NCBI GenBank assembly: GCA_014526335.1
Contig: JACTAT010000218.1
Span: 529,879 to 593,878 of the forward strand
Direction of reading: 5' to 3'
Length of the DNA stretch: 64,000 nucleotides
Origin: Chrysaora quinquecirrha
Taxonomy: Eukaryota > Cnidaria > Scyphozoa > Semaeostomeae > Pelagiidae
The first letter of the stretch is position 1, and the number at the start of each line of letters is the position of its first letter. The translations under genes and the position numbers were made by a program. Below the pieces are notes generated by a model. It was not told the DNA's origin, ran no database searches, and was given only the letters and a program-made list of their open reading frames with translations. This document shows, in pieces, positions 1-59,399 of this stretch.

Positions 1-1
1 T

Positions 2-780: not shown

Positions 781-788
781 CAGTAAAA

Positions 789-5957: not shown

Positions 5958-5978
5958 TGTTAAAACGGTTCGTTATAA

Positions 5979-6110
5979 CAGTTTAGAATAATGTTACAGC
6001 AATTTGTTAAACAGTTTAGAATAATGTTACAACAGTCTGTTAAACAGTTTAGAATAATGTTACAATAGTCTTTTAAACAGTTTAGAATAAAGTTAAAACG
6101 GTTTGTTAAA
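5979..6110. repeat. 33-bp tandem repeat, four units, between convergent genes
   Basis: Four adjacent 33-base units each begin CAGTTTAGAATAA and end near TTAAA; a fifth degenerate unit precedes them from about 5946. It lies in the 22-165 bases separating the protease stop from the polymerase stop. It could hold the polyadenylation or termination signals of both converging transcripts. Confidence 0.85.
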
Positions 6111-6122
6111 AAATTTAAATGT

Positions 6123-34334: not shown

Positions 34335-34944
34335 AATCATGGAATCTGGAAAACATAAATTATGAGACAAAGTGCGAGAAAATGAAATCTTCCACCCCTT
34401 CCCCCCATTTTCAATGTTGGAGACACAGCAAGAGTGTGGCAAGTGTACTCATGTTACCAATTCTTCAACACTGAATAAGGGGAGAGGGGGAAGTGGTTTT
34501 ACGTTTGATTTGTCTCAAAATATTTTGTCCATGATTGTCTCATTTTTTGAGATAAAAAAGAGACGCTTATTTGTTACTTGTGGTGAGTTTTGTAGTGAAA
34601 AAAACTACGTAGTATTAATCCAGGGCTTTGTTTCGAAGTGAAAAATTGTTTTCTGACTAAACAACATGGAATAATTAAGCAAAGCATCCGAAATGAATAA
34701 ACTACACACTTAATACTGAAAATAGTACTTAATCACTTCTTGAATAAGCTACAGGTACGAATTTTAGATGATTATCGTTAATTGAAGATCTATGAAATGT
34801 TCATTTACTTCATACCAAATAAAGTGGACATACATCGCCGTTAGCCTTCCACCCATAATTTATGCATGACAAAATGCCTCACTCCCAGACCCCTTGTCAA
34901 ATTTTGGCGCGAAACGGGTTAATGAAATTTTTTCACAAATACAC

Positions 34945-36330
34945 ATGGTTGTTAGCGATAGTAGCGATAAGCACAAAATGGACTCGACATTATCAGATAC
35001 ACGTTCAGGACGGAGACAGTACCTTATCACGTACTCGCAAGTTGATGAAGTGAAATTCCCAACAAGAGAGAGTTTTGGTTGTATGCTGGAGAGTGAATTC
35101 AACTCTGGTAAATCTGTAGTTAAAGTGGAGCAATAGGCCTGTTGTCCGGAACCACACGAGAAAGGTGGATTTCATTACCACTGTGCTCTGAAAATGACAG
35201 GAAACTAAAAGTGGCTAGCTGTGAAGGAAAACATCACAAAAAAGTATGGTATAGTTGTGAACTTTAGCGATAGCCATGACCACTATGTCAGTGCATATAG
35301 ATACATGACGAAAGAAGATCAGAATGTTGCTCATAGTAAAGACCATAAAAACTTGGCTGATGTGAGATCTCCAAAAACAAAACATTCAATTGCTGGTAAC
35401 CAGGCCGCTGGAAAGAAAAGAAAGCTATCTTTGTCAGGTGGAAATCAAAACAAAGTATGAATAGTACCCAAGAAGAAAAAACGACGTCTCAGTAACTCCA
35501 AAGTAGCAGATTTCACCCGAAAACACAACATCACAACATACACGTCCTTGTTTGCCACTGCTGAGGAAAGAAAAGAAGAAGGAGAAAATGATATAGCCGA
35601 ATTTGTTTTGTCCCATCAAGAAAAGCATATAAGAGAGCTGATCAGCAAGGCATGGTTTATCAAAGAGGCACCAAGCAAATTGCAGAGAGAAAAAATATCC
35701 CGAATTACAGAAGTTCAAAATGCCTTGGAAGGAGAATGCGTTCTTGGTTGCAACAAAATCTGGTTACAGTGTGCCTTAGAGGTTCTCAACTTCAACAATG
35801 TGGACCCACAAGTCTATGCTTCAAGCTTGCGAGATATCTTGGTGAATGGAAGAGGGAAGTTCCGAAATCTAATTCTTGTTGGCCCTGAAAATTGTGGGAA
35901 AACTTTTATGTTAAAGCCACTGAAAAGTATCTTCCATGAAAAAGTCTTTGAAAACCCATCTAATGATAAGTTTGGCTGGATTGGTGCAGAGAATGCAAGC
36001 ATAATAATTCTACAAGACTTCTGTTGGAACAAGGATTCTATTACATGGAAGGATTTGCTGCTTCTTCTGGAGGGGGAAACTGTTAAGCTGCCAGCACCCA
36101 AAAATTTATATTTGTGTGATGTGGTCATTGACAGTGATGTTGCAATATTCGCCACAAGCAAAGCACTGGTCACATACAGAGGTCCCTACAATACAACTGA
36201 CCAAGCTGAAGACGCAATGATGAAGGTACATTGGAATGTCATCAATTTCAACCATCAATTTTCTGAAAAGAATCAGAAAACTGTTCTGCCTTGCGGTCGA
36301 TGCTTTGCTGAATTGGCATTCCTTAACTAA
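34945..36330 (+). pseudogene. CRESS-type Rep (HUH endonuclease + superfamily 3 helicase), copy 1
   Basis: One frame of 461 codons from ATG 34945, broken only by three stops: TAG 35134, TAA near 35207 and TGA near 35458. Visible motifs: motif I YLITYSQ, HUH motif II HYH (residues 77-79), motif III YMTK with the candidate nicking Tyr (about 120), basic nuclear-localisation-like runs (KKRKLS, KKKKRR), Walker A GPENCGKT (about 313), Walker B IIILQDF (about 353) and the later IFATSK block. The combination is that of Rep proteins of circular ssDNA viruses, which nick and unwind DNA for rolling-circle replication. It is an endogenous, inactive copy. Confidence 0.85.
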
Positions 36331-36404
36331 TCGACTTTACCACAATATAATGTTATGATATGATTGGAGAATTAGCAAGTCATATGCAACCTACATGCAC
36401 ATGT

Positions 36405-36530
36405 AACCATGTGTAACCAAACATGTTTCCACACATGTTCCCACCAGTTTATTAAGACTTTCTATATATTTTCACATGTCACCACATGTTACCAAACTTT
36501 TAAAAAAATATATATATATATATTTTTTTA
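36405..36530. repeat. Left arm of the array palindrome, truncated at the apex
   Basis: The left arm found in units 2-4 is present, then TATATATATA and unrelated sequence replace the right arm. Confidence 0.75.
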
Positions 36531-36689: not shown

Positions 36690-36856
36690 AAACCTGGAAT
36701 CTGGAATCTGGAAAATGGAATCTAGAAAACATGGAATCTTTAAAACATGGAATCTAGAAAACATGGAATCTTTAAAACATGGAATCTGGAAAACGTGGAA
36801 TCTTTAAAACATGGAATCTAGAAAACATGGAATCTTTAAAACATGGAATCTTTAAT
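36690..36856. repeat. CATGGAATCT tandem repeat
   Basis: About ten copies of ACATGGAATCT alternate with TTTAAA and AGAAA linkers, giving a unit near 16 or 32 bases. A stray unit (GGAATCTGGAAAA) interrupts the leader of copy 1 at about 34341. Confidence 0.85.
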
Positions 36857-37084
36857 CATGGCCATAAATTATGAGACAAAGTGTAAACTGGTTATTTTGT
36901 CGACAGGTTGGCACAAATAAAACGACACAATTGGAGTAATTAGTCCTTCTTTAATTCTTCTGATATAAATATCTTCCCAGAGCTATACTTTGCAGCATGC
37001 GATAAACGGCAAAACGACAATACGTTTCATACGTACTAGGAACTCTATAGCTAACATTTCTCAAGCGTTCAACATCATTCTAGA

Positions 37085-37584: not shown

Positions 37585-37794
37585 GAATTGATTTCGAATC
37601 GTCAATAACTAGATCCAATAGAGGAACAGCATCCTTACTTATAATGAGATCACAACAAACAGCAAACACTTTTTCATTCTCATATTTTTCTTTTAGATAT
37701 AGCGTACAAGCAATCATACTACATTTCCAACTGGTATCCACTGGAAGTGGATTAACAAAATGAAAACATGTCTATTATTTAGAGTTACATTCAT
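37585..37794 (-). pseudogene. Polinton small ORF (as 2249-2611), truncated by gap
   Basis: Starts at ATG 37792-37794 and matches 2249 onward, with a 2-base insertion near 37765 that shifts the frame. It then reads KCSMIACTLYLKEKYENEK and is cut by the gap. Confidence 0.75.
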
Positions 37795-38790: not shown

Positions 38791-38799
38791 AAGGAAGAA

Positions 38800-39796
38800 C
38801 TAAATCAAATTCTTTATCAATAATATTGTCTCCAATTGGCTTTCAGCTACCCACTCATCAAATTGTGGAGGATAACCTCTCCATCTGATTAAGTAGAAGT
38901 TTTTGCCCCTCTTCTTCTTAGTTTTCAACACTTGCTCGACAACAAATGTTTTTGGAAGATACACACGCTGTAGCTCTTCTTTGTAAAAACAATCAACTAT
39001 CACTGATCTTGAATATTTCTTCAGTGTAATTTTGCAAGTAACCTTAATCTTAAACATTCTCTTCTTCAAACTCAATCTTACATAATCTCCAGTTTTGAAA
39101 AGCTTTTTATTTTTTCTGGTTTCTTTTTTAAACAGTCTTTTTCGAACAGTGTCGACATTGTCTTGGTTGTCTTCAGAAGGTCTCATACCAATAGATCTGT
39201 GGTATGTATTATTGTATGAGTTGACAAAATCGTGCAAATTATCAATATATCTCAATTAATTTCGTGCTGTAAAGTATCTATACATTCGTCCTTTTAATGT
39301 TCTGTTAAATCGTTCAACAATTGCTGCCTTTACTTCATTATTTGCAGTGTAAAATCTAATACCGTTTTTCTTCAACAAAAGCTTGGAATTCTTTGTTTAC
39401 AAAGTCGCTGGCTTTATCCAATCGTATCTTTTTAGGTTTTCTTACGGATAAAATTTCTTTAAATGCATTGACAATTTCCATACTTGCTAAAAGTATCAAT
39501 ACAGCATAAGAGGAATGTAATGTTGTCATTTTCTGTTTTCAAATGCGCCATATCAACAAGATCACATTCCCATAAATAATCAATGTTATTGGTTAGTATC
39601 CGCTCCGGTTTAAAATTCTTCCTACTTGGTTTTGTTTAGTGAATAGGCAAGACTAGTTTTACTCCACTCTTCAACATCTTTCCTTTTTAAATAAGGAATC
39701 ACTTTTTTGAATTCCCTATATGCTTTATCCAGACTCCCTAGAGAACCCGGAACAGAAGGATCAGAATATAACTTTTCTAAACTCACAATAAGTCAA
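38800..39796 (-). pseudogene. Polinton 2 integrase, core and chromodomain part
   Basis: Downstream part of an rve-type integrase interrupted at 39797 by the Kolobok. Pieces seen: WECDLVDMAH with the first catalytic Asp (about 39570), a DKASDF segment with the second, AAIVERFNRTL with Glu (about 39310), NTYHRSIGMRPSE, and a C-terminal chromodomain (NFYLIRWRGYPPQFDEWV, about 38880). Frameshifts occur near 39260, 39370 and 39490-39640. The chromodomain is typical of Polinton integrases and may steer insertion to chromatin marks. Confidence 0.8.
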
Positions 39797-39965
39797 TTAA
39801 AGGGCCCCTAAAGTCAAAAATTTTTTTTTAAGATTTCGATAGTGGATAACGCCCTGAAAGCCATCCTGAAGTTTTTTTTAAGAAATATTGCTTCTTCTGC
39901 CTGTTATAAGCGCTCAAAGTTGGACTCGGCGGGCAAAATCCGAGAAATTTTTCTCGGAAAAAAGC

Positions 39966-40006
39966 CCTGTGTGACGTAACACGGGGCTATTGTTACGTCA
40001 CACAGG
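39966..40006. promoter_or_regulatory. Perfect 16-bp-arm hairpin with TGACGTAA sites
   Basis: CCTGTGTGACGTAACA and its exact reverse complement flank 9 bases, about 255 bases upstream of the transposase ATG. TGACGTAA resembles a CREB/ATF site; TGACGTCA also occurs near 46009, upstream of the element's other gene. Confidence 0.6.
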
Positions 40007-40259
40007 TCTATTGTTATCATTTCGGTGAGTAAAACGCGTAACTCGGCCATGACGATTCCTGATCGGTCAGAAACCGAGAAAACAAGCACAGACAGGCACA
40101 GACCGCATTTGGCATACTGTTTTCAGTCTTTTGGGAGTACTTGCTACTAGTCGTCAGACGCTTTCGCTTTCTCTCAAATTATAGTGTGAGAATAATCGTA
40201 CTGTTTGATTTTTTTCCTTTATCATATTATTTTATTATTTTTGAACACCAAACTGCGAA

Positions 40260-43200: not shown

Positions 43201-43599
43201 TTCTTGCTGCTTTGCACTATAATGAAAACAGCGACAGACCTCAAGCAACAACCAGTGATGGCAAAGCTGCACATTCAGTCAAATTTCCAAAATACAAAAA
43301 AGGAGGCTATATCATTCGAGTTAAGCAAACTGCACCAACATATGGTATGTGATATCGCAGTGGCTTTTTTATATTCTCTTGAAGATGCTGACTTGTGGTA
43401 AGGTTTTATTTCAAAATTAAACTTTCCAGGATACATTGAGACATTAATGAAAACTTTATGTGATGAAGTCATTGTCAACTCTGACCCATTTCAACAAGAA
43501 ATGGCCAGTGTAGTAGCTCCAGAGCCTATGTGCAAGAGATATGAGCATCCAGACAGAGAGAATGCTATAGCCCAATACTGCAAACGTTTCAACACCTAA
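40260..43599 (+). CDS. Kolobok transposase with THAP domain, eight exons
   Basis: Exons by GT-AG sites and phase: 40260-40583, 40751-41050, 41188-41722, 42084-42270, 42399-42632, 42734-42905, 43196-43344, 43430-43599, about 690 codons. Exon 1 is a THAP zinc finger (C-x4-C in CFVEDC, then CSAHF), which binds the element ends. Exon 3 has two CxxC pairs (CPLCKQPC, CTSCGYQ) and GTDGRADSPGHSAKYG with a catalytic-type Asp; later exons carry ITDRHLQIQKW, YYDVWHVA and EAYHSLILHF. All junctions stay in phase except one apparent one-base shift inside exon 2 near 40830. That may be a real lesion or a sequence error. Confidence 0.8.
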
Positions 43600-44637
43600 C
43601 TTGATGCACGAAAAAGAAACAAACAACTATGGCGGATAGTGGCTAGATTTTGTCATTGACAGAATCTAGAATGGAGATGTGGACACCTCTATACTTCCAC
43701 TAGTCTGGGTGTTCGCCTTGGGAAAGTGATAGCACGCCCTTATCCTCCCTGCCAGGGTTACGGCGAAGAATTCACAGTCAGCTGGGGCTGCAATAAGGTA
43801 TTGCCAGAATAACAAAACTATTTAACAAAAAATGATATTCAATCATAAGAATACAATTTATGGTATGATGTGTCATTGATTGATAATCTTCAAAATAACT
43901 TTTCATGTACTTTAGTAATATGCTATTAATCATTTCTAGTAGATTTTCACAGAGGACCATGGTTATGATAATTTATCAGATGGTGAGAATGGGGTATGCA
44001 TCACCATTTCACAGAATAGAATTCAAAGCAAACTGCCAATGGAAATAATGACAAGAGAACCACAAAGATACATCCAAGATTCAACGTGATGTTATTGGTA
44101 TTGATGGATGAATACAATTATGATCACAATCTGATCGCATTAGAGGACAGTATTATCATTATTATGTCCACATTTTTAAAAACATAGCAATTCCAGGAGT
44201 ACAGTCGGACTTGCACTAGAATCAAGTTTCTTGTAATTAGGACTCAAATTTTCGGTCTAAAACCCATCTGCCTTCAAATATTTCAGAATTTGAAAGCATT
44301 GGATCCCTTAATTAGTACATCACAATAATAGTATTTCTCCTGACCTAAATAGATCATCTGTCTATTATCACAGTGAAGAAATGGGGCTTGCTATTACATG
44401 ATATATTGGAAAAAAAATAATTTTTAATTGAATTTGCGATTTCAAATCAACACCATTTTAAGCAACAAGCTTTGCCACAAATGATTAAAAATGAAGGCTA
44501 TTGACCATTTTCTTTTCCTGGCAAATGCTTTACTGATCTAATGATTTTGTTACCCTCTGTGTGAAAATTTGCAAAAATTATAACCTGGTCATGTATGAAA
44601 AATAAGGATGAAAACTACTATATACATATATTACAAA
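43600..44637. other. Kolobok interior, non-coding
   Basis: Sequence between the two convergent genes. A degenerate stretch follows the transposase stop to about 43800; no supported ORF. Confidence 0.5.
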
Positions 44638-45923
44638 CTAAGTTACATCTTGATAACCAACAAATTCATGCTGCCCAAACTCTTCTTCATTTCCAGGTGG
44701 AGGAAAATTTGCCCGAATACAGCAAACAGCACAAGCAGGAAGCACTACTCTCACCTCCCTGCCAAGAAAGCCCCAACACCATCTGGCAAGTTGACGATAG
44801 GCTACATGCCTGTTCTGTTTGTGCTCTGGACCGTTGTAGTGCTGCTGGTACTGTGTACGATACTGAAACCATGCTGTCTGAAGAACCCATCTATTCAAAC
44901 AAACGGCATGAAAAGCATCCGTATCAGTTATGCAGGAAGGCTGGTTTTCTTCAGAATGGGTTGCAGCAACTTCCTCAAGCTTGTTGGCCACCTCCACAAC
45001 TTCATCACAGCAGATACATCCATGTGCCGTTGGCATGATCTGGCAATGACCACAGGTGCAACTTTGAGACAAAATTTATGATAAATTATTTCTGAGTGAT
45101 TAATTTCATCTTCCATTAATCCAATTAATCAAAGTGTATTAATTAGTTATAAATGGGACACATTCTGAACTTTTTTAGAATAATGCTGTTAGTGCAACAA
45201 GGACCTTCAGAGAACATTTGACTAATCTGTTTTGTATGTATCTAGATTAATAATATTTATTATACTGATAACAGCTGACATACAAGGACAGAGACATCAG
45301 AACAGTAAATCTGAGCCATAACTGGCTGAGGAATTCCACACGTGAGCTCATGTGTCAGAGCAATGATGGTGTTCAACTACCCAATATAACAAGTACAGAC
45401 AACAAGCTAGTAACATAATAATTTTTGCATGTAAATTTAAATTGACATAAGGCTCGCTTGCTTTTGGGTCAAGGAATTCCATATCTGAGCTCTTGGCTGT
45501 GCATTCAGCACTTGAGCAATGATGGTGAACTTCTACAAAGCCAAAATACAGCAAAACAAAAAGGGTATGAATGCTTTAATTCTATGTGAAATTGAAAGCT
45601 TTAGAAGTTTGGTATTTTTTAATTGAATTTTATATGTCATTGATAAGAAAGCTCACCAAGATAAATCATGCAGTCTGTCTTCATTTTCGTTTCCCTATCT
45701 CTATTCTCAGCTCTAGGTCCAACTCTTCCAATTGCTCTACCAGATATTGAGGTTCAAACTGGTACGGTAAGACATTGCCATTTTCAACTATAATATCTGG
45801 AGAGCCTTGAGAATCCATAGATTGAGCCTCTGAATCCAAATCAGACATCCCGACGTACACACTGGAAACAAAACTGGCCTCATCACTGCTGGCGCTGCTG
45901 CTCGGATCAGATCGATCCGCCAT
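44638..45923 (-). CDS. P2X7 C-terminal-domain-like second gene of the Kolobok, at least two exons
   Basis: Main exon about 45061-44638, after a TCTCAAAG acceptor, encodes C-x-C-x2-C in CTCGHCQIMPT, CCDE, an AVCLNRWVLQTAW block and YRQLARWCWGFLGREVRVVLP. This is the zinc-binding cytosolic tail domain of P2X7 receptors, widely found as a stand-alone protein in cnidarian mobile elements. A likely first exon at 45923-45681 starts MADRSD and contains PYQFEP, usual at the head of such proteins. How the two are joined is not settled. There is no channel domain, so it is not a receptor; its role in transposition is unknown. Confidence 0.65.
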
Positions 45924-46181
45924 CTTTGCAAAGACAAAGTGAAGTCCAGTTTTTGCTGCCTAACCGAAAATTTTGTCCGAAGATTTGGCGATTGCCGACT
46001 GGCAGTGTGACGTCAATTCAGGATTTTCCGAAAATAACAATTCAATTCAATTTTCGAAATACAAATGCTTATATAAGCAAAACGGTGCTAGATATCAAAG
46101 AAATAATAACAGATTCCTTTTCAAGAGGTCCATTCCCATCATAATCAGAAATAAAAATCTTTGACTTTAGGGGCCCTTTAA

Positions 46182-46334
46182 CAATTCTAAAAATTTAACA
46201 CTTGTACAGTTTTTTCTTTGTCGCTTTCTTTTCTTGCACTTTCTTCCTTAATTTATGATCTTTTTAGGCTTTTTCTTCACTGGTTCATTGTCAGATTTGC
46301 TTAGTTCCATAACTATCTTTTCAAAAGAATCCAT
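46182..46334 (-). pseudogene. Polinton 2 integrase N-terminal part
   Basis: ATG 46332-46334 opens MDSFEKIVMELSKSDNEP, nearly identical to the head of the integrase at 789 in Polinton 1. It is frame-broken in the Lys-rich head, then cut by the Kolobok at 46181. It continues at 39796 on the other side. Confidence 0.8.
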
Positions 46335-46362
46335 TTTTACTGCCTTACTGAATTGCCGATCT

Positions 46363-47036
46363 CTATTTATAACCTTTTTTAGACTTGTAAACCACTAAAG
46401 GAGCTTCATTAGCGAAAATATTAGTACCAAATCTCATATCTTCTCCAATCGATTGTGTGAAATCACAAAGTAAGTAGCCGCACATTCTTGCTGTTGCATC
46501 ATTGTAAATGTCAAGGAATGTTTTTGAAGATGTGGGCACAATTTGTCGCGCAAGAAATCTAATTTGACTTCTATCACGAGCATTCTTGAAAAATACTTGA
46601 TATTGAGTATTGAGAGCTAAATTTTTCATTTCTGTTCCTCTTGGAAAAGGGTTTTGCATCATAACAATGACGTTGATGTTTAAATGAGAACTTCCTCTTG
46701 TGAACAATTTTCCCAAATCTTTAAAGTTGGCAATTTCATGCATTAAATCATTGACAACAATAGTTAATCTTTTGTCGGATCTTTCGATTTCTTTGTACAA
46801 GTTTTCAGGTAGCTCAGTAAAAATCTACAATTCCCGTTAAAACTTTTTTTAACATGCTCAAACAATTCCAGTTGATTTGTTCCTAAGATCCACATAAGAT
46901 TGGGATATTGTCTGCCATTATCAATTATATTGTTATAATTTTTCAACAGATTTTCCACCCAAGTCCCTTTGCCGCTTCCGCTTACTCCAGATAAAATCAA
47001 AGAAAAAGGTGCTTTAAATCTCAAATCGTAACTCAT
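46363..47036 (-). pseudogene. A32/FtsK-like DNA packaging ATPase, one frameshift
   Basis: ATG 47034-47036. Walker A SGVSGSGKGTW lies near residue 15-25, LMWILGT in the next strand, Walker B-like RLTIVVNDLMHE near residue 95, then MMQNPF and the end KSKKGYK. Two open pieces (47036-46764 and 46800-46363) are offset by a one-base shift near 46800. The length (about 225 residues) fits Polinton packaging ATPases, which load DNA into preformed capsids. Its tail matches the fragment at 600-777 in Polinton 1. Confidence 0.85.
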
Positions 47037-47170
47037 ATTTATAACAATATCTTAACATCTCATACAACAGGTAACATCTATTTATAACAAATTCTTAACA
47101 TCTAGCTCTAACATCAAAATAATATCTATTAAATCTAATTTTGAACATCTCATAAATAACAACGTTCAGT

Positions 47171-47580
47171 CTAGACAAATGCGATGATTAAATTGTTTAT
47201 TATTTGTTTTAATAATTGCAGCAGATATATCGTTGTCGAGAGACTTGGATGAGATAATTCATCATACAGGTTTTCAACTCTGGATTTGATTATTTGATTC
47301 AGACGACCATTCTTCTTCTTCAGCTCATCAATCATTGATGTCTTGAATGATTCTTTCCCTTCAGCCAGCATGTCGGAGTTGACATAACTAATGTGAAATG
47401 TTAGAAATCTGAAAGTATTATGAACCATACAATCTCGCTTGTGGTCAGAAGCATCAATTTGTTTTGTCTCTGTAGTTGCAGACTTTTCACAATACTTTTT
47501 TGCTTTGCAGAAAATACATTTCAGGAGAACTTCCGCGTATGCTTCTTGCCCTTGACCTTCGACGTCTGGATGTTTTTGTT
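47171..47580 (-). pseudogene. Unrecognised Polinton 2 ORF with Cys/His cluster, 5' part unclear
   Basis: One minus-strand frame is open from about 47580 to the stop at 47171. It holds CIFCKAKKYC, then HKRDCMVH, a possible zinc site, and a helical Lys-rich C-terminal part (IDELKKKNGRLNQII). No clear ATG at the head; the Rep array begins just beyond (47622). It occupies the place upstream of the ATPase, where Polinton 1 has different ORFs. Function unknown. Confidence 0.4.
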
Positions 47581-47837
47581 TCGTTTTCTTTGTTTTTTTT
47601 CATCATCAATCGCTGGTCTACAATCATGGCCATAAATTATGAGACAAAGTGCGAGAAAATGAAATCTTCCACCCCTTCCCCCCATTTTCAATGTTGGAGA
47701 CACAGCAAGAGTGTGGCAAGTGTACTCATGTTACCAATTCTTCAACACTGAATAAGGGGAGAGGGGGACGTGGTTTTACGTTTGTGTTTACGTTTGATTT
47801 GTCTCAAAATATTTTGTCAACATGGAATAATGATTGT

Positions 47838-49168
47838 ACACGTTCAGGACGGAGACAGTACCTTATCACGTACTCGCAAGTTGATGAAGTGAAATTCCCA
47901 ACAAGAGAGAGTTTTGGTTGTATGCTGGAGAGTGAATTCAACTCTGGTAAATCTGTAGTTAAAGTGGAGCAATGGGCCTGTTGTCGGGAACCACACGAGA
48001 AAGGTGGATTTCACTACCACTGTGCTCTGAAAATGACAGGGAACAAAAAGTGGCTAGCTGTGAAGGAAAACATCACAAAAAGTATGGTATAGTTGTGAAC
48101 TTTAGCGATAGCCATGACCACTATGTCAGTGCATATAGATACGTGACGAAAGAAGATCAGAATGTTGCTCATAGTAAAGGCCATAAAAACTTGGCTGATG
48201 CGAGATCTCCAAAAACAAAACATTCAATTGCTGGTAACCAGGCCGCTGGAAAGAAAAGAAAGCTATCTTTGTCAGGTGGAAATCAAAACAAAGTATCAGT
48301 AGTACCCAAGAAGAAAAAACGACGTCTCAGTAACTCCGAAGTAGCAGATTTCATCCGAAAACACAACATCACAACATACACGTCCTTGTTTGCCACTGCT
48401 GAGGAAAGAAAAGAAGAAGGAGAAAATGATATAGCCGAATTTGTTTTGTCCCATCAAGAAAAGCATACAAGGGAGCTGATCAGCAAGGCATGGGTTATGA
48501 AAGGGGCACCAAGCAAATTGCAGAGAGAAAAAATATCTCGAATTACAGAAGTTCAAAATGCCTTGGAAGGAGAATGCGTTCTTGGTTGCAACAAAACCTG
48601 GTTACAGTGATCCTTAGAGGTTCTCAACTTCAACAATGTGGACCCACAAGTCTATGCTTTAAGCTTGCGAGATATCTTGGTGAATGGAAGAGGTAAGTTC
48701 CGAAATCTAATCCTTCTTGGCCCTGCAATTTGTGGGAAAACTTTTATGTTAAAGCCACTGAAAAGTATCTTCCGTGAAAAAGTCTTTGAAAACCCATCTA
48801 ATGATAAGTTTGGCTGGATTGGTGCAGAGAATGCAAGCATAATAATTCTACAAGACTTCCGCTGGAACAAGGATTCTATTACATGGAAGGATTTGCTGCT
48901 TCTTCTGGAGGAGGAAACTGTTAAGCTGCCAGCAACCAAAAATTTATATTCAGGCGATGTGGTCATTGACAGTGATGTTGCAATATTCGCCACAAGCAAA
49001 GCACCGGTCACATACAGAGGTCCCTACAATACAACTGACCAAGCTGAAGACGCAATGATGAAGGTACGTTGGAATGTCATCAACTTCACCTATCAATTTT
49101 CTGAAAAGAATCAGAAAACTGCTCTGCCTTGCGGTCGATGCTTTGCTGAATTGGCATTGCTTAACTAA
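47838..49168 (+). pseudogene. Rep, array unit 2, N-terminal truncation
   Basis: Similarity begins at the SGRRQYLITYSQ region; the first about 17 residues and the upstream region were deleted. One base is missing in an A-run near 48078 (frameshift), and TGA at 48608-48610 replaces a Cys codon. Motifs kept: HYH, YVTK (Tyr kept), Walker A GPAICGKT, Walker B IIILQDF. It lacks the insertion and stop shared by units 3 and 4, so it represents an earlier state. Confidence 0.85.
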
Positions 49169-49236
49169 TCAACTTTACCACAATATAATGTTATGATATG
49201 ATTGGAGAATTAGCAAGTTATATGCAACCTACATGT

Positions 49237-49460
49237 ACATGTAACCACATGTAACCAAACATGTTTCCACACAAGTTCCCACCAGTTTATTAAGATTTTC
49301 TATATATTTTCACATGTTACCACATGTTACCAAACTTTTAAAAAATATATTTTTTATAAATAAGTGGTAACATGTGGTAACATGTGAAAATATATAGAAA
49401 GTCTTAATAAACTGGTGGGAACATGTGTGGAAACATGTTTGGTTACACGTGGTAACATGT
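49237..49460. repeat. Long palindrome, unit 2
   Basis: Arms 49239-49332 and 49365-49458 (about 94 bases, few mismatches) enclose a 32-base AT-rich loop. Both arms carry repeated ACATGT and GTTACC words. It lies downstream of Rep, between the convergent genes. Confidence 0.9.
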
Positions 49461-49586
49461 TGCTGCTTTGTATAACTTCTGTGTTTTGTTAAACTTTGAT
49501 AAATAACTAGCATGAATCAGATAAAGAAATACCAGCACCACCTATGTAGAAGCATCTCTGTCTTTCAGGTCATCTTTTCCTCCTCT

Positions 49587-49750
49587 GCACCCCCAACCGG
49601 CAGCCCTCACAAGGATTGGCAAGGCCAAAATGAAATGCTAATCCCTTGAAATGAGGGTGGTGGTACCTCCCCGGACGGCTGTGACAGGAATTACAGCCAC
49701 GCATCCCTGGCATGAGGGGTATGAATGCAAACCACTACACTGCCTACCAC
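49587..49750 (-). repeat. SINE-like or repeated stretch, unit 2
   Basis: On the minus strand it reads GTAGTGGTTTGC followed about 40 bases later by GGCTGTAATTCC, loosely like the A and B boxes of a tRNA-derived SINE. Present in all three full units. Weak call. Confidence 0.25.
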
Positions 49751-49930
49751 CTACAAAATGCAGTTAACAATATGACGTGACCTGCAAAACATTTTACCTC
49801 CAAATTGGTGGACCTGGTTAAATCGTAATGAGAGATATATGTAAACATTGTCTAACCCCCTTAAGTACTTAATTTGCATACCTTTAGCTTTCATTACCAT
49901 GCTTATTCTCTTATCCATTGTCTCGATTAA

Positions 49931-50942
49931 TCAGTCGATTTCTTCACTCGGATACTCCATCATAGTTTTCTTTACAAGCTCTGAGAACTGTTCGCATGTT
50001 TCTTTCCGGATATCATTTGCCAAAGCTTGCTCTCTTAGTTTCTGTGTAACAGAGTTGAAGAAATTCTTAATTGGATTTAAATCTGGTGACCTTGCAGGAA
50101 TCTTTAATACTTTAGCTCCAATTGAATGCAGTGCATCTCTGGCCTTTTTACTATTCTGCCGTGGACAACCATCTTGCAAAACTCTTTTCCCTTTTGGATC
50201 AATACTTTTTTGGAAAGCTGGTGGAAAAGCAGAATGAATCATATCGGCCATTTTCCGACCATTAATTGCTCCAGAATATTGCTCACATAGAACAACACCA
50301 TTGTGATATGATATTCCAACCATGAAATTTACATTAACTGCACCCTCTTTGCTCCCTTTTGCTGTGCAACCACGTTTCAAGCCCTCACTTCTCTTCCTCC
50401 ATTCCTCTTGCCTGATCAAGCGGATTGGTTTTGTAAACAAACCCCTTGCCATCCAAATAAAAGGAGATGTGATAACTCCAAAAGTCTTGTCCGATTTTAT
50501 GCCTGCACACCTTCCGACAAAATTTCACTCTTTCCTTTAAGTCTTGCTGCGTCATCAGCCCCTTCTTTCGTGATCGTAGATAAGAGTATCCTTCTTCGTT
50601 CAAAACCCCTCTGACAGTTCGATTTGAAACCTTGCCTTCGACACTTGCTTCGACAGCAATTCGTCGTAATGTAAACGACCCGTGTGTTTCTCGGAGCTTC
50701 GGCACAGAACGCACAATACTCCTTTTAGCTGTGGGTGTTAGCTTGGGAGGCCGACCTTTGTTCAACTTTCTTTTATCATGAGGAACCTCTCCTCCAACAA
50801 CCCTTTTTGCATGCCTGTAGATAGTCGCTTTACTATACTGTGGAAAAATTCTCAACAGCTCTGCACCCGTAACTTCAGCATTCTAATACAAGGCAGCGAT
50901 TTCTGCTGATTGCCTCAGGGGAACTTGTTGTCGTCTCGCCAT
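49931..50942 (-). pseudogene. Tc1/mariner DD34E transposase, unit 2
   Basis: ATG 50940-50942 (MARRQQVPL). An N-terminal paired-type helix-turn-helix with GRPPKLTP (AT-hook-like) is followed by the DDE core: FYLDGKGF (first Asp), VLQDGCPRQNS (second Asp), SPDLNPIKNFF where the catalytic Glu is Lys. Two further lesions: TAG near 50885 and the frameshift near 50420 (after NPLDQA) shared by all three units. It would cut and paste DNA at TA sites. Confidence 0.88.
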
Positions 50943-51170
50943 TTTGTAATTACTTTTGTTTGTTGTTTATTTTGATTTGTTTTGCTAATGATGTTGTTGT
51001 TGTTGTTGCTGTTCTTTTCTTGGTAAATAACAGACAGTAATCCGAAAACATTTTCCGTTTTATCTGTGGGTATCTATTTCTATTACAACTGTCAATCTTC
51101 ATCACTTTCGTATGCCTACTGCTACAACATTTCTCACGAAAATTTGTTTAAGTCTAATGAATTTTAAGAT

Positions 51171-51252
51171 GTCTCATTTTTTGAGAAAAAAAAGAGACGC
51201 TTATTTGTTACTTGTGGCGAGTTTTGTAGCGAAAAAAACTACATAGTATTAA
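51171..51252 (+). promoter_or_regulatory. Candidate replication origin, unit 3 5' intergenic region
   Basis: GTCTCATTTTTTGAG at 51171 forms a hairpin with TCTCA/TGAGA and an outer GTCTC/GAGAC pair; 45 bases on, TGTAG/CTACA forms a stem next to TAGTATTAA (51244-51252), one base off the circovirus-type nonanucleotide TAGTATTAC. It lies between divergent transposase and Rep starts, where such origins sit. Also in copy 1 (34610), unit 4 (55083) and unit 5 (58913). Confidence 0.4.
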
Positions 51253-51581
51253 TCCAGGGCTTTGAGTCGAAGTGAAAAAATTGTTTTTGGTCTAAACAAC
51301 ATGGAATAATTAAGCAAAGCATCCGAAATGAATAATCTACACACTTAATACTGAAAATAGTGTTTAATCACTTCTTGAATAAGCTACAGGTACGAATTTT
51401 AGATGATTATCGTTAATTGAGGATCTATGAAATGTTCATTTACTTCATGCTCAATATAAAGTGGACATACATCGCCGTTAGCCTTCCACCCATAATTTAT
51501 GCATGACAAAATGTCTCACTCCCAGACCTCTTGTCAAATTTTGGTGCGAAACGGGTTAATCAAATTTTTTCACAAATACAC

Positions 51582-52977
51582 ATGGTTGTTAGCGATAGTA
51601 GCGATAAGCACAAAATGGATTCGACATTTTCAGATACACGGTCAGGACGGAGACAGTACCTTATCACGTACTCGCAAGTTGATGAAGTGAAATTCCCAAC
51701 AAGAGAGAGTTTTGGTTGTATGCTGGAGAGTGAATTCAACTCTGGTTAATCTGTAGTTAAAGTGCAGCAATGGGCCTGTTGTCGGGAACCACAAGAGAAA
51801 GGTGGATTTCACTACCACTGTGCTCTGAAATTGACAGGGAAGAAAAAAAGGCTAGCTGTGAAGGAAAACATCACAAAAAAGTATGGTATAGTTGTGAACT
51901 TTAGTGATAGCCATGACCACTATGTCAGTGCATATAGATACATGACAAAAGAAGATCAGAATGTTGCTCATAGTAAAGGCCATAAAAACTTGGCTGATGC
52001 GAGATCTCCAAAAAACAAAACATTCAATTGCTGGTAACCAGGCTGCTGGAAAGAAAAGAAAGCTATCTTTGTTAGGTGGAAATCAAAACAAAGTATCAGT
52101 AGTACCCAAGAGGAAAAAACGACGTCTCAGTAACTCGGAAGTAGCAGATTTCATCCGAAAACACAACATCACAACATACACAACATACACGTCCTTGTTT
52201 GCCACTGCTGAGGAAAGAAAAGAAGAAGAAGAAAATGATGTAGCCGAATTTGTTTTGTCCCATCAAGAAAAGCATATAAGAGAGCTGATCAGCAAGGCAT
52301 GGTTTATGAAAGAGGCACCAAGCAAATTGCAGAGAGAAAAAATATCCCGAATTACAGAAGTTCAAAATGCCTTGGAAGGAGAATGCATTCTTGGTTGCAA
52401 CAAAACCTGGTTACAGTGTGCTTTAGAGGTTCTCGACTTCAACAATGTGGACCCACCAGTCTATGCTTCAAGCTTGCGAGATTTCTTTGTGAATTGAAGA
52501 GGGAAGTTCCGAAATCTAATTCTTGTTGGCCCTGCAAATTGTGGGAAAACTTTTATGTTAAAGCTACTGAAAAGTATCTTCCGTGAAAAAGTCTTTGAAA
52601 ACGCATCTAATGATAAGTTTGGCTGGATTGGTGCAGAGAATCCAAGCATAATAATTCTACAAGACTTCCGTTGGAACAAGGATTCTATTACATGGAAGGA
52701 TTTGCTGCTTCTTCTGGAGGGGGAAACTGTTAAGCTGCCAGCACCCTAAGATTTATATTCAGGCGATGTGGTCATTGACAGTGATGTTGCAATATTCGCC
52801 ACAAGCAAAGCACCAGTCACATACAGAGGTCCCTACAATACAACTGACCAAGCTGAAGACGCAATGATGAAGGTACGTTGGAATGTCATCAACTTCACCT
52901 ATCAATTTTCTGAAAAGAATCAGAAAACTGCTCTGCCTTGCGGTCGATGCTTTGCTGAATTGGCATTGCTTAACTAA
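51582..52977 (+). pseudogene. Rep, array unit 3
   Basis: Start ATG 51582. Lesions: TAA at 51747-51749 (Lys codon), one extra A near 52012 (frameshift), TGA at 52495-52497 (Gly codon), TAA at 52747 (Lys codon). HYH, YMTK, GPANCGKT and IIILQDF remain readable. A 9-base in-frame duplication (ACAACATAC) near 52175 is shared with unit 4 but absent from copies 1 and 2. The extra A and the TAA at 52747 are also shared with unit 4. Confidence 0.85.
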
Positions 52978-53040
52978 TCAACTTTACCACAATATAATGT
53001 TATGATATGATTGGAGAATTAGCAAGTTATATGCAACCTA

Positions 53041-53270
53041 CATGTACATGTAACCACATGTAACCAAATATGTTTCCACACATGTTCCCACCAGTTTATT
53101 AAGACTTTCTAAATATTTTCACATGTTACCACATGTTACCAAACTTTTAAAAAAGATATTTTTTATAAATAAGTGGTAACATGTGGTAACATGTGAAAAT
53201 ATATGGAAAGTCTTAATAAACTGGTAGGAACATGTGTGGAAACATGTTTGGTTACACGTGGTAACATGTT
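53041..53270. repeat. Long palindrome, unit 3
   Basis: Same palindrome as in unit 2, arms about 95 bases around an AT-rich loop near 53150-53170. Confidence 0.9.
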
Positions 53271-53417
53271 GCTGCTTTGTATAACTTCTGTGTTTTGTTA
53301 AACTTTGATAAATAACTAGCATGAATCAGATAAAGAAATACCAGCACCACCTATGTAGAAGCATCTCTGTCTTTCAGGTCATGATAAATAGCTTTATTTT
53401 TTATGAATTTTTCTTTT

Positions 53418-53590
53418 TCGTCCTCTGCACCCCCAACCGGCAGCCCTCACAAGGATTGGCAAGGCCAAAATGAAATGCTAATCCCTTGAAATGAGGGTGG
53501 TGGTACCTCCCCGGACGGCTGTGACAGGAATTACAGCCACGCATCCATGGCATGAGGGGTATGAATGCAAACCACTATACTGCCTACCAC
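53418..53590 (-). repeat. SINE-like stretch, unit 3
   Basis: Copy of the stretch at 49587-49750. Confidence 0.25.
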
Positions 53591-53770
53591 CTACAAAATG
53601 CAGTTAACAATATGATGTGACCTGCAAAACATTTTACCTCCAAATTGGTGGATCTGGTTAAATCGTAATGAGAGATATATGTAAACATTGTCTAACCCCC
53701 TTAATTACTTAATTTGCATACCTTTAGCTTTCATTACCATGCTTATACTCTTATGCATTGTCTCGATTAA

Positions 53771-54782
53771 TCAGTCGATTTCTTCACTCGGATACTCCAT
53801 CATAGTTTTCTTTACAAGCTCTGCGAACTGTTCGCATGTTTCTTTCCGGATATCATTTGCCAAAGCTTGCTCTCTTAGTTTCTGTGTAACAGAGTTAAAG
53901 AAATTCTCAATTGGATTTAAATCTGGTGACCTTGCAGGAATCTTTAATACTTTAGCTCCAATTGAATGCAGTGCATCTCTGGCCTTTTTACTATTCTGCC
54001 GTGGACAACCATCTTGCAAAACTCTTTTCCCTTTTGGATCAATACTTTTTTGGAAAGCTGGTTGAAAAGCAGAATGAATCATGTCGGCCATTTTCCGACC
54101 ATTAATTGCTCCAGAATATTGCTCACATAGAACAACACCATTGTGATATGATATTCCAACCATGAAATTTACATTAACTGCACCCTCTTTGCTCCCTTTT
54201 GCTGTGCAACCACGTTTCAAGCCCTCACTTCTCTTCCTCCATTCCTCTTGCCTGATCAAGCGGATTGGTTTTGTAAACAAACCCCTTGCCATCCAAATAA
54301 AAGGAGATGTGATAACTCCAAAAGTCTTGTCCGATTTTATGCCTGCACACCTTCCGACAAAATTTCACTCTTTCTTTTAAGTCTTGCTGCGTCATCAGCC
54401 CCTTCTTTCGTGATCGTAGATAAGAGTATCCTTCTTCGTTGAAAACCCTTCTGACAGTTCGATTTGAAACCTTGCCTTCGACACCTGCTTCGACAGCAAT
54501 TCGTCGTAATGTAAACGGCCCGTGTGTTTCTCGGAGCTTCGGCACAGAACGCACAATACTCCTTTTATCTGTGGGTGTTAGCTTAGGAGGCCGACCTTTG
54601 TTCAACTTTCTTTTATCATGAGGAACCTCTCCTCCAACAACCCTTTTTGCATGCCTGTAGATAGTCGCTTTACTATACTGTGGAAAAATTCTCAACAGCT
54701 CTGCACCCGTAACTTCAGCATTCTGATACAAGGTAGCGATTTCTGCTGAGTGCCTCAGAGGAACTTGTTGTCGTCTCGCCAT
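53771..54782 (-). pseudogene. Tc1/mariner DD34E transposase, unit 3
   Basis: ATG 54780-54782, 185 residues open to the shared frameshift (near 54255), then 173 residues to the stop at 53771. First Asp in FYLDGKGF, second in LQDGCPRQ, Glu in LNPIENFF with 34 residues between second Asp and Glu, the DD34E spacing of Tc1. The catalytic residues are all present; the frameshift is the only lesion I see. It is the best preserved transposase of the array. Confidence 0.9.
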
Positions 54783-55421
54783 TTTGTAATTACTTTTGTT
54801 TGTTGTTTATTTTGATTTGTTTTGCTAATGCTGTTGTTGTTGTTGTTGCTGTTCTTTTCTTGGTAAATAACAGACAGTAATCCGAAAACATTTTCCGTTT
54901 TATCTGTGGGTATCTATTTCTATTACAACTGTCAATCTTCATCACTTTCGTATGCCTACTGCTACAACATTTCTCACGAAAATTTGTTTAAGTCTAATGA
55001 ATTTTAAGATGTCTCATTTTTTGAGAAAAAAAAGAGACGCTTATTTGTTACTTGTGGCGAGTTTTGTAGCGAAAAAACTACATAGTATTAATCCAGGGCT
55101 TTGTGTCGAAGTGAAAAAATTGTTTTTGGTCTAAACAACATGGAATAAATAAGCAAAGCATCCAAAAATGAATAATCTACACACTTATTACTGAAAATAG
55201 TGTTTAAACACTTCTTGAATAAGCTACAGGTACGAATTTTAGATGATTATCGTTAATTGAGGATCTATGAAATGTTCATTTACTTCATGCTCAATATAAA
55301 GTGGACATACATCGCCGGTAGCCTTCCACCCATAATTTATGCATGACAAAATGTCTCACTCCCAGACCTCTTGTCAAATTTTGGTGGAAAACGGGTTAAT
55401 CAAATTTTTTCACAAATACAC

Positions 55422-56816
55422 ATGGTTGTTAGCGATAGTAGCGATAAGCACAAAATGGATTCGACATTATCAGATACACGGTCAGGACGGAGACAGTACC
55501 TTATCACGTACTCGCAAGTTGATGAAGTGAAATTCCCAACAAAAGAGAGTTTTGGTTGTATGCTGGAGAGTGAATTCAACTCTGGTAAATCTGTAGTTAA
55601 AGTGCAGCAATGGGCCTGTTGTCGGGAACCACAAGAGAAAGGTGGATTTCACTACCACTGTGCTCTGAAACTGACAGGGAAGAAAAAGTGGCTAGCTGTG
55701 AAGGAAAACATCACAAAAAAGTATGGTATAGTTGTGAACTTTAGTGATAACCATGACCACTATGTCAGTGCATATAGATACATGACAAAAGAAGATCAGA
55801 ATGTTGCTCATAGTAAAGGCCATAAAAACTTGGCTGATGCGAGATCTCCAAAAAACAAAACATTCAATTGCTAGTAACCAGGCTGCTGGAAAGAAAAGAA
55901 AGCTATCTTTGTTAGGTGGAAATCAAAACAAAGTATCAGTAGTACCCAAGAGGAAAAAACGACGTCTCAGTAACTCGGAAGTAGCAGATTTCATCCGAAA
56001 ACACAACATCACAACATACACAACATACACGTCCTTGTTTGCCACTGCTGAGGAAAGAAAAGAAGAAGAAGAAAATGATGTAGCCGAATTTGTTTTGTCC
56101 CATCAAGAAAAGCATATAAGAGAGCTGATCAGCAAGGCATGGTTTATGAAAGAGGCACCAAGCAAATTGCAGAGAGAAAAAATATCCCGAATTACAGAAG
56201 TTCAAAATGCCTTGGAAGGAGAATGCGTTCTTGGTTGCAACAAACCTGGTTACAGTGTGCTTTAGAGGTTCTCGACTTCAACAATGTGGACCCACCAGTC
56301 TATGCTTCAAGCTTGCGAGATTTCTTGATGAATGGAAGAGGGAAGTTCCGAAATCTAATTCTTGTTGGCCCTGCAAATTGTGGGAAAACTTTTATGTTAA
56401 AGCTACTGAAAAGTATCTTCCGTGAAAAAGTCTTTGAAAACGCATCTAATGATAAGTTTGGCTGGATTGGTGCAGAGAATCCAAGCATAATAATTCTACA
56501 AGACTTCCGTTGGAACAAGGATTCTATTACATGGAAGGATTTGCTGCTTTTTCTGGAGGGGGAAACTGTTAAGCTGCCAGCACCCTAAGATTTATATTCA
56601 GGCGATGTGGTCATTGACAGTGATGTTGCAATATTCGCCACAAGCAAAGCACCAGTCACATACAGAGGTCCCTACAATACAACTGACCAAGCTGAAGACG
56701 CAATGATGAAGGTACGTTGGAATGTCATCAACTTCACCTATCAATTTTCTGAAAAGAATCAGAAAACTGTTCTGCCTTGCGGTCGATGCTTTGCTGAATT
56801 GGCATTGCTTAACTAA
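55422..56816 (+). pseudogene. Rep, array unit 4
   Basis: Start ATG 55422, intact through the HUH and YMTK motifs. Lesions: the extra A (near 55852) and the TAA at 56586-56588, both shared with unit 3, plus one missing A near 56243. The Lys and Gly stops of unit 3 are absent. Walker A GPANCGKT and Walker B are kept. Confidence 0.85.
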
Positions 56817-56880
56817 TCGACTTTACCACAATATAATGTTATGATATGATTGGAGAATTAGCAAGTTATATGCAACCTAC

Positions 56881-57107
56881 ATGTACATGTAACCACATGT
56901 AACCAAACATATTTCCACATGTTCCCACCAGTTTATTAAAATTTTCTATATATTTTCACATGTTAACACATGTTACCAAACTTTTAAAAAAGATATTTTT
57001 TATAAATAAGTGGTAACATGTGGTAACATGTGAAAATATATAGAAAGTCTTAATAAACTGGTGGGAACATGTGTGGAAACATGTTTGGTTACACGTGGTA
57101 ACATGTT
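56881..57107. repeat. Long palindrome, unit 4
   Basis: Third copy of the palindrome, with a small deletion in the left arm (CATATTTCCACATG). Confidence 0.9.
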
Positions 57108-57258
57108 GCTGCTTTGTATAACTTCTGTGTTTTGTTAAACTTTGATAAATAACTAGCATGAATCAGATAAAGAAATACCAGCACCACCTATGTAGAAGCA
57201 TCTCTGTCTTTCAGGTCATGATAAATAGCTTTATTTTTTATGAATTTTTCTTTTTCGT

Positions 57259-57429
57259 CCTCTGCACCCCCAAGCGGCAGCCCTCGCAAGGATTGGCAAG
57301 GCCAAAATGAAATGCTAATCCCTTGAAATGAGGGTGGTGGTACCTCCCCGGACGGCTGTGACAGGAATTACAGCCACGCATCCCTAGCATGAGGGGTATG
57401 AATGCAAACCACTACACGGCCTACCACCT
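57259..57429 (-). repeat. SINE-like stretch, unit 4
   Basis: Copy of the stretch at 49587-49750. Confidence 0.25.
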
Positions 57430-57607
57430 ACAAAATGCAGTTAACAATATGACGTGACCTGCAAAACATTTTACCTCCAAATTGGTGGACCTGGTTAAAT
57501 CGTAATGAGAGATATATGTAAACATTGTCTAACCCCCTTAAGTACTTAATTTGCATACCTTTAGCTTTCATTGCCATGCTTATTCTCTTATCCATTGTCT
57601 CGATTAA

Positions 57608-58611
57608 TCAGTCGATTTCTTCACTCGGATACTCCATCATAGTTTTCTTTACACGCTCTGAGAACTGTTCGCATGTTTCTTTCCGGATATCATTTGCCAA
57701 AGCTTGCTCTCTTAGTTTTTGTGTAACAGAGTCGAAGAAATTCTCAATTGGATTTAAATCTGGTGACCTTGCAGGAATCTTTAATACTTTAGCTCCAATT
57801 GAATGCAGTGCATCTCTGGCCTTTTGACTATTCTGCCGTGGACAACCATCTTGCAAAACTCTTTTCCCTTTTGGATCAATACTTTTTTGGAAAGCTGGTG
57901 GAAAAGCAGAATGAATCATGTCGGCCATTTTCCGACCATTAATTGCTCCAGAATATTGCTCACATAGAACAACACCATTGTGATATGATATTCCAACCAT
58001 GAAATTTACATTAACTGCACCCTCTTTGCTCCCTTTTGCTGTGCAACCACGTTTCAAGCCCTCACTTCTCTTCCTCCATTCCTCTTGCCTGATCAAGCGG
58101 ATTGGTTTTGTAAACAAACCCCTTGCCATCCAAATAAAATGAGATGTGATAACTCCAAAAGTCTTGTCCGATTTTATGCCTGCACACCTTCCGACAAAAT
58201 TTCACTCTTTCTTTTAAGTCTTGCTACGTCATCAGCCCCTTCTTTCGTGATAGTAGATAAGAGTATCCTTCTTCGTTCAAAACCCTTCTGACAGTTAGAT
58301 TTGAAACCTTGCATTCGACACCTGCTTCGACAGCAATTCGTCGTGATGTAAATGACCTGTGTGTTTCTTGGAGCTTCGGCACAGAACGCACAATACTCCT
58401 TTTATCTGTGGGTGTTAGCTTGGGAGGCCGACCTTTGTTCAACTTTATTTTATCATGAGGAACCTCTCCTCCAACAACCCTTTTTGCATGCCTGTAGATA
58501 GTTATACTGTGGAAAAATTCTCAACAGCTCTGCACCCGTGACGTCAGCATTCTGATACAAGGCAGCGATTTCTGCTGAGTGCCTCAAAGGAACTTGTTGT
58601 CGTCTCGCCAT
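57608..58611 (-). pseudogene. Tc1/mariner DD34E transposase, unit 4
   Basis: ATG 58609-58611. It has the shared mid-gene frameshift, an 8-base deletion near 58500 (absent from units 2 and 3) that breaks the N-terminal helix-turn-helix frame, and several substitutions in the linker. DNPIENFF-type Glu and the second Asp remain. Confidence 0.85.
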
Positions 58612-58839
58612 TTTGTAATTACTTTTGTTTGTTGTTTATTTTTATTTGTTTTGCTATTGCTGTTGTTGTTGTTGTTGCTGTTCTTTTCTTGGTAAATAAC
58701 AGACAGTAATCCGAAAACATTTTCCGTTTTATCTGTGGGTATCTATTTCTATTACAACTGTCAATCTTCATCACTTTCGTATGCCTACTGCTACAACATT
58801 TCTCACGAAAATTTGTTTAAGTCTAATGAATTTTAAGAT

Positions 58840-59170
58840 GTCTCATTTTTTGAGAAAAAAAAGAGACGCTCATTTGTTACTTGTGGCGAGTTTTGTAGCG
58901 AAAAAAACTACATAGTATTAATCCAGGGCTTTGTGTCGAGTGAAAAAATTGTTTTTGGTCTAAACAACATGGAATAATTAAGCAACGCATCTGAAATAAA
59001 TAATCTACACACTTAATACTGAAAATAGTGTTTAATCACTTCTTGAATAAGCTACGGGTACGAATTTTAGATGATTATCGTTAATTGAGGATCTATGAAA
59101 TGTTCATTTACTTCATGCTAAATATAAAGTGGACATACATCGCCGTTAGCCTTCCACCCATAATTTATGC
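58840..59170 (+). repeat. Array unit 5, partial (5' region only)
   Basis: Repeats the first 330 bases of a unit (hairpin, TAGTATTAA and Rep upstream region), then ends abruptly at GCAT before unrelated DNA. Confidence 0.85.
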
Positions 59171-59399
59171 ATAGCTTAGCAAAATCTTTAAACAGTGTCC
59201 GGCCAGAAACGGGATCAATTAAAGAAAGAAGCGCATCTCTGGGTGGCCCAGGGAAAAAGCCTTTCTTTTTCAATTGAACAAAGGGCCATAACAATGGGGC
59301 AACCTGATTTGCATTTAAACATATTAGTAATACAGGATATACCAACATGTCTATCTCTACGAATCTCTCCTTAAAATATTACAATTACAAAACAGCAAC

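What the first reader, a model, noticed from the sequence alone, without database searches (positions are those of the whole stretch)
47622..59170. Tandem array of a composite unit: CRESS-type Rep plus Tc1/mariner transposase in an ambisense layout
Three successive 3.8-kb units each pair a HUH/SF3 Rep (plus) with a DD34E transposase (minus). As a circle the unit has divergent 5' ends around a hairpin region and convergent 3' ends around a palindrome, the plan of circovirus-like genomes with a transposase in the capsid position. Seen: both genes in all three units, exact head-to-tail periods of 3840 and 3829. Inference: a replicon that used Rep to amplify and a transposase to insert. I know of no described family with exactly this pair, but I could not search.
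Basis: partly seen in the sequence, partly recalled or inferred. Interest (0 to 1): 0.9.

Follow-up and report, generated by a model that had tools for sequence, protein, structure and literature searches.

The report
Rep-plus-transposase composite mobile element
An animal-type genome carries tandem arrays of a small DNA element that pairs a virus-like replication protein with a cut-and-paste transposase; related arrays and relatives elsewhere indicate the two genes have travelled together for a long time, which points to an undescribed hybrid of virus and transposon.

Summary
The array is real: three head-to-tail units (periods 3840 and 3829), each with a HUH-SF3 Rep (plus) and a DD34E Tc1-type transposase (minus), converging on a ~224-bp palindrome. 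Chance nesting is very unlikely. A second array of the same units lies on contig C386, a single unit on C643, and a diverged family B on C246 (68-70% DNA identity) has the same layout, one unit with a 447-aa Rep and a 364-aa transposase in open frames. Between A and B both genes show equal, near-saturated synonymous change and low amino-acid change (Rep pN 0.18/pS 0.76; transposase 0.17/0.72). In public proteins Rep and transposase homologs share six exact contig lengths, three over 100 kb, and their distances correlate (r 0.88, 2 of 40320 permutations). 42 of 150 transposase loci of this genome, these included, have a direct neighbour at 3.2-4.7 kb; Rep was not tested at most of them. The copies in this window are decayed. 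An excisable TIR-bounded cassette (X) marks the left end of the integrations mapped. Most likely: a ~4-kb circular replicon amplified by Rep and integrated by transposase and/or Rep; circularity and activity are not shown. Closest known: RepE1 cressviruses, Teratorn.

The parts
47620..59172 (+). Tandem array (X, then about three head-to-tail Rep+transposase units)
47620..47818 (+). X cassette at the left end of the array; left TIR CAATCATGG..., preceded by TA; similar X at the left end of the other integrations mapped
47837..49168 (+). Rep of unit 1 (HUH + SF3), frameshifted, N-terminus lost
49237..49460 (.). 224-bp palindrome between convergent 3' ends, unit 1 (centre 49348/49349)
49931..50945 (-). 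Tc1-type transposase of unit 1, frameshift and early TGA
51160..51181 (.). X-less junction AAGA-TG-TCTC in the divergent intergenic region (X excision footprint?)
51617..52978 (+). Rep of unit 2, broken
53046..53269 (.). Palindrome, unit 2
53771..54782 (-). Tc1-type transposase of unit 2, same frameshift and TGA
55000..55021 (.). X-less junction, same sequence as at 51160
55457..56817 (+). Rep of unit 3, broken
56885..57106 (.). Palindrome, unit 3
57608..58614 (-). Tc1-type transposase of unit 3, same frameshift and TGA plus a further break
58829..59172 (+). X-less junction and start of a fourth unit; similarity ends at 59172
34354..36513 (+). Second integration in the window: X - Rep upstream - Rep - palindrome arm, no transposase; ends near the palindrome tip
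36852..36883 (+). Isolated piece of the X left TIR followed by other sequence

Best explanation
The unit is a member of a family of ~4-kb composite mobile elements that encode a HUH/SF3 Rep and, in the opposite orientation, a DD34E Tc1-type transposase, with a divergent intergenic region (X, short TGTCTC/GAGACA repeats) and a long palindrome between the convergent 3' ends. Shown: the pair, the layout and the palindrome are conserved between two families diverged to synonymous saturation, with low amino-acid change in both genes (purifying selection). Inferred: the element replicates as a circle by Rep-driven rolling-circle replication, giving head-to-tail concatemers; the transposase acts on the TIRs of X, so that in a concatemer a segment X-unit(s)-X can be inserted at TA, and X can also be cut out, leaving 2-4-nt footprints. 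The arrays in this window are decayed descendants.
Against: No circular form was seen. Scans of IMG/VR and GTDB contigs with Rep gave no confirmed relative. Two loci (34 kb and C211:70k, one duplicated integration) hold Rep without transposase. Right ends differ between loci and in three loci fall near the palindrome tip, not at a TIR; the left X of C643 and the left end of C246 are not flanked by TA. The X-less junctions of family A are identical (7 of 7), so they count as one event. At 3-5 kb the contig-length coincidences alone are weak (2 against 0.32 expected, reached in 4% of trials), and one of them comes from two different sources. Rep adjacency was tested only for the fetched loci, which were found with DNA of this element; for the other transposase loci it was not tested. 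Common descent with the hosts could add to the distance correlation.
Confidence: 0.72

Rival explanations
1. Composite element, but integration is done by Rep (HUH nick-and-join, single-ended), as proposed for other endogenous ssDNA viruses; the transposase serves something else or only moves X.
For: The integrations mapped start at the same left point (X left end) while right ends vary and in three loci lie near the palindrome tip; direct arrays with X at the leading edge.
Against: C643 ends at the outer TIR of a second X followed by TA; X-less junctions look like transposase footprints; the transposase is as conserved as Rep.
Confidence: 0.22
2. Chance nesting: a Tc1 element inserted once into an endogenous Rep element and the pair was multiplied by segmental tandem duplication.
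For: Rep-only copies exist (34 kb, C211:70k); the transposase in both family-A arrays shares one frameshift and one stop, so it was broken before the arrays grew.
Against: No TIR pair found around the transposase gene alone; the same pair and orientation in family B with open frames and equal divergence of both genes; shared contig lengths and correlated distances elsewhere.
Confidence: 0.04
3. The arrays are host-made satellites: unequal crossing-over multiplied single integrated copies, without Rep.
For: The window array and its C386 counterpart have different unit numbers at one shared integration; a satellite of palindrome-arm-like repeats exists at C275.
Against: Direct arrays of similar ~4-kb period on 11 contigs and in diverged lineages of this transposase; contigs of ~4 kb in other sources.
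Confidence: 0.15

Closest known systems
RepE1 cressviruses of sea anemones and seawater (PMC11071296: section 12 read in full, passages elsewhere)
   Same: Sequences of ~3.5-4.5 kb with a papillomavirus-E1-like Rep, in part endogenous, high-copy and rearranged in cnidarian datasets; our Rep relatives include Paramuricea clavata, and some match Parvo_NS1 and PPV_E1_C. That it is the very same Rep family was not tested, as their sequences were not at hand.
   Different: Those described in section 12 carry capsid- or coat-like proteins (Hepecap, Nodacap, Filcoat); no transposase gene is mentioned there. Here a DD34E transposase takes the second-gene position.
Teratorn (piggyBac-herpesvirus fusion; PMC10175614, passages read)
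   Same: Fusion of a DNA-virus replicon with a cut-and-paste transposase; the review proposes insertion of one viral unit flanked by two transposon copies out of a concatemer, which resembles X-unit-X at C643.
   Different: 180 kb, herpesvirus plus piggyBac, against ~4 kb, Rep plus Tc1. The review (2023) calls Teratorn the first example of such a fusion.
Helitrons and Terminons (PMC6431247, passages read)
   Same: Eukaryotic mobile elements that use or carry rolling-circle Rep proteins; Terminons can form head-to-tail arrays.
   Different: Helitrons have one large RepHel protein; Terminons are retroelements.
Tc1/mariner transposons (Sleeping Beauty-like, DD34E)
   Same: Transposase (5cr4 match E 7.6e-07; DD34E); TIR-bounded X with some TA flanks.
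   Different: No TIRs found around the transposase gene alone; linked to a Rep; ~4-kb direct arrays.

Membership tests
CRESS-DNA virus (RepE1 cressvirus) | Rep with HUH endonuclease and SF3 helicase | tested here: met
   Motifs conserved in a 26-row alignment (motif names recalled); structure model of a relative matches AAV Rep68 and geminivirus Rep domains
CRESS-DNA virus (RepE1 cressvirus) | Capsid gene | tested here: not met
   In the window units no ORF of 90 aa or more lies outside Rep and transposase (others overlap them); in the L117 part of family B no ORF of 150 aa or more besides Rep and transposase lies inside the array; broken, spliced or short genes not excluded
CRESS-DNA virus (RepE1 cressvirus) | Circular ssDNA genome | not testable with these tools
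   Only direct arrays and ~4-kb contig lengths
Tc1/mariner transposon | DD34E transposase with HTH domains | tested here: met
   PF01498 and PF13358 above cut-off; DD34E in family B
Tc1/mariner transposon | TIRs immediately around the transposase gene | tested here: not met
   Best inverted match between the two flanks of the gene in unit 1/2 is 12 nt
Tc1/mariner transposon | TA target duplication | tested here: inconclusive
   TA before the X left end at 47620, C386 and (with a 10-nt insertion in the TIR) 34 kb, and after the X right end at C643; not at C643 left or C246; no empty site seen
Parvovirus | Linear genome with terminal hairpins | tested here: inconclusive
   Long palindrome present and three loci end near its tip, but units are joined head-to-tail
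Helitron | RepHel with SF1 (Pif1-type) helicase | tested here: not met
   Helicase matches SF3 proteins; that Helitrons use an SF1 helicase is recalled
Teratorn-like fusion | Transposase and viral replicon inside one TIR-bounded unit | tested here: inconclusive
   C643 is X-unit-X with outer X TIRs, the left one damaged

The most novel reading that the evidence does not exclude
A widespread, ancient class of ~4-kb animal mobile elements ('Rep-Tc1' elements) alternates between a Rep-replicated circle and chromosomal tandem arrays, with a Tc1 transposase in place of a capsid: a virus that gave up particles for a transposase, or a transposon that gained a viral replication engine. Its X cassette would be the transposase's own substrate, turning concatemers into X-unit-X insertions.
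Probability: 0.5. Interest if true: 0.9.

Novelty: new variant of a known kind. Interest (0 to 1): 0.84.

Why it matters
The review PMC10175614 (passages, 2023) calls the 180-kb Teratorn the first fusion of a cut-and-paste transposon with a DNA virus. A 4-kb version, with both genes conserved to synonymous saturation and transposase arrays on at least 11 contigs of one genome, would be a minimal system for the question of how viruses become transposons and back, would explain ~4-kb direct arrays of Tc1-type genes, and would warn against filing such Reps as virus infections or such transposases as plain Tc1 elements.

Tried and rejected
Chance nesting was tested by looking for TIRs around the transposase (none found), for the pair at other loci and for co-divergence; rejected. 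The abutting palindrome arms were first taken for the transposon's TIRs (note); weakened, because at C211:70k similarity runs about 13 nt past the centre and at C386 it stops about 11 nt before it, and because X has its own TIRs. X was first taken for host flank or a random MITE; less likely because its counterpart lies at the same place in family B. That the window and C386 arrays are independent integrations was rejected: they share ~10 kb of left flank at 98.6-99%, so they are haplotypes or a duplication; likewise 34 kb and C211:70k. The near-equal pN and pS between B units (ratios 0.69-0.94) cannot be read as neutrality: the units are 99.3-99.5% alike, so those values come largely from out-of-frame stretches; not used.

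No confirmed relative of Rep in IMG/VR or GTDB contigs; of the transposase none in IMG/VR and, among the best 80 kept, only loci of bacterial records at 22-40% identity in GTDB. PDB sequence searches with Rep gave nothing meaningful. Ten paper searches (listings seen) showed no described Rep+Tc1 element; most subscription papers are not held and Repbase was not available. Passages of PMC6668415 were also read.
Full report
Observation. Each unit has a Rep on the plus strand and a transposase on the minus strand. A near-palindrome of about 224 bp without spacer lies between the convergent 3' ends. The window also holds a fourth Rep copy at 34354-36513, without transposase. The window is G000:C211:529879-593878 in a genome of 328 Mb in 740 contigs; it looks like an animal (a P2RX7_C domain; Polinton-like genes judged by eye from the ORFs), but the species was not determined.

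Transposase. HTH_Tnp_Tc3_2 and DDE_3 are above cut-off; Sleeping Beauty is the only PDB match at E 0.01; family B shows D, D and E with 34 residues between the last two. In the window all three copies share a frame break (between residues 179 and 185 of the B protein) and an early TGA. The query, which begins with about 35 out-of-frame residues of unit 2, matches 7 of 7 copies of the window and C386 arrays in one open frame from residue 1, so the break is shared; the four C386 copies also have the TGA (3 match the motif exactly, the fourth has one changed base before the same stop). C643 lacks this TGA and is broken between residues 153 and 161. So in the array lineage the transposase was broken before the arrays grew.

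Other loci. With the left flank of the transposase as DNA query, one search found 54 matches: a second array on C386, a single unit on C643, a piece at C211:70 kb, a diverged array on C246 and a satellite of arm-like repeats at C275. Fetched and mapped: C386 has 5 full Reps and one partial with 4 transposases between them; C643 reads X - Rep - palindrome - transposase - X; C246 has 3 Reps and 3 transposases at 68-70% DNA identity to the window, units 99.3-99.5% alike and a palindrome of about 240 bp; C211:70k is X - Rep - arm, without transposase. Of the six loci with these genes that I examined (these four and two in the window), none has a transposase without Rep, but they were found with DNA of this element. 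C275 showed neither gene. One C246 unit has open frames for Rep (447 aa) and transposase (364 aa); one C386 Rep is open too.

Independence. The C386 and window arrays share about 10 kb of flank on the X side at 98.6-99%, hence one integration; so do 34 kb and C211:70k on both sides, at about 94% with other shared stretches. Independent integrations known: these two, C643 and C246.

Selection and age. Between A copies and B, Rep shows pN 0.178-0.193 in 7 of 9 copies compared and pS 0.747-0.774 in all nine; the other two, with out-of-frame stretches in the alignment, give pN 0.23 and 0.29. The transposase shows pN 0.167-0.185 in 6 of 7 copies (the seventh 0.23) and pS 0.709-0.721. Three of the five full C386 Reps and three of its four transposases were in this comparison. 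Both genes thus have about the same age and constraint in the pair; pS is near saturation, so no dN/dS is given (infinite dS). Within A, Rep copies are 93-99% alike.

Linkage elsewhere. The last protein search, with the 197-aa transposase piece, gave 145 homologs, 120 listed. When the transposase lengths are jittered by up to 10%, 1.2 matches are expected in all (6 or more in 0.15% of trials), 0.0004 above 100 kb (3 observed) and 0.32 at 3-5 kb (2 observed, reached in 4% of trials). So the short ones alone are weak; the long ones are strong for the same contig but not for adjacency; the 4227 pair is listed under two different sources. Over 8 pairs (A, B and the six) Rep and transposase identities correlate, r 0.88, reached by 2 of 40320 permutations. 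Shared host history could add to this.

Arrays of the transposase. With the same piece this genome has 150 scored loci out of 336 candidates. 42 of 150, those of this array, C386 and C246 included, have a same-strand neighbour at 3.0-4.8 kb (3158-4686 observed), on 11 contigs; of 47 same-strand spacings under 60 kb, 29 fall at 3-5 kb; a few matches are pieces of one gene. Whether the others have Rep could not be tested.

X and the ends. X (about 190-226 bp) has TIRs CAATCATGG[A/C]CATAAATTATGAGACA... in both families. It stands at the left end of the six loci mapped, between transposase and Rep at one of two internal B junctions, and at the right end of C643. X-less junctions read AAGA-TG-TCTC in family A (7 of 7 identical) and CAGA-CGGG-TCTATG and CAGA-CAG-TCTATG in family B, which I read as excision footprints. 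TA precedes X at 47620, C386 and 34 kb (there with a 10-nt insertion in the TIR) and follows it at C643; not at the left of C643 or C246. Right ends vary: near the palindrome tip (34 kb, C211:70k, C386), X (C643), 59172 (here), and the Rep upstream region (C246).

Mechanism. Rep-driven rolling-circle replication of a circle of about 4 kb would give the direct arrays; the transposase acting on X TIRs in a concatemer would give X-unit-X. This parallels the scenario given for Teratorn (PMC10175614, passages). The alternative, Rep-made single-ended integration, fits the fixed left and ragged right ends. I cannot decide between them.

Known and new. RepE1 cressviruses (PMC11071296, section 12) are the nearest described replicons, about 3.5-4.5 kb, partly endogenous in sea anemones, with capsid-like second genes. 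No described element with this pair was seen in ten paper searches. I therefore call it a new variant of the virus-transposon fusion kind.

Noticed in passing
window 1-9770 and 37585-47600: Two Polinton/Maverick-like stretches (A32-like ATPase match below cut-off, PolB-, integrase- and capsid-like ORFs by eye); the second abuts the array and is shared at ~99% with C386, where it continues further.
   Followed up: partly
window 37085-37584: A 500-N scaffold gap separates the 34-kb Rep copy from the second Polinton stretch, so their order is not certain.
   Followed up: no
L118 (G000:C275:71394-76223): Satellite-like block of many repeats 70-87% like the palindrome arms, without Rep or transposase.
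   Followed up: partly
window 36852-36883 and L115:5005: X-type TIR followed by different sequence (GTAAACTGG...), perhaps another cassette with the same TIR.
   Followed up: no
window 44638-45072 (-): P2RX7_C domain ORF (E 2.1e-10), sign of an animal host.
   Followed up: no
G000 contigs C185, C190, C2, C247, C285, C368, C424, C620: Further direct neighbours or arrays of diverged relatives of this transposase with spacings of 3.2-4.7 kb.
   Followed up: partly
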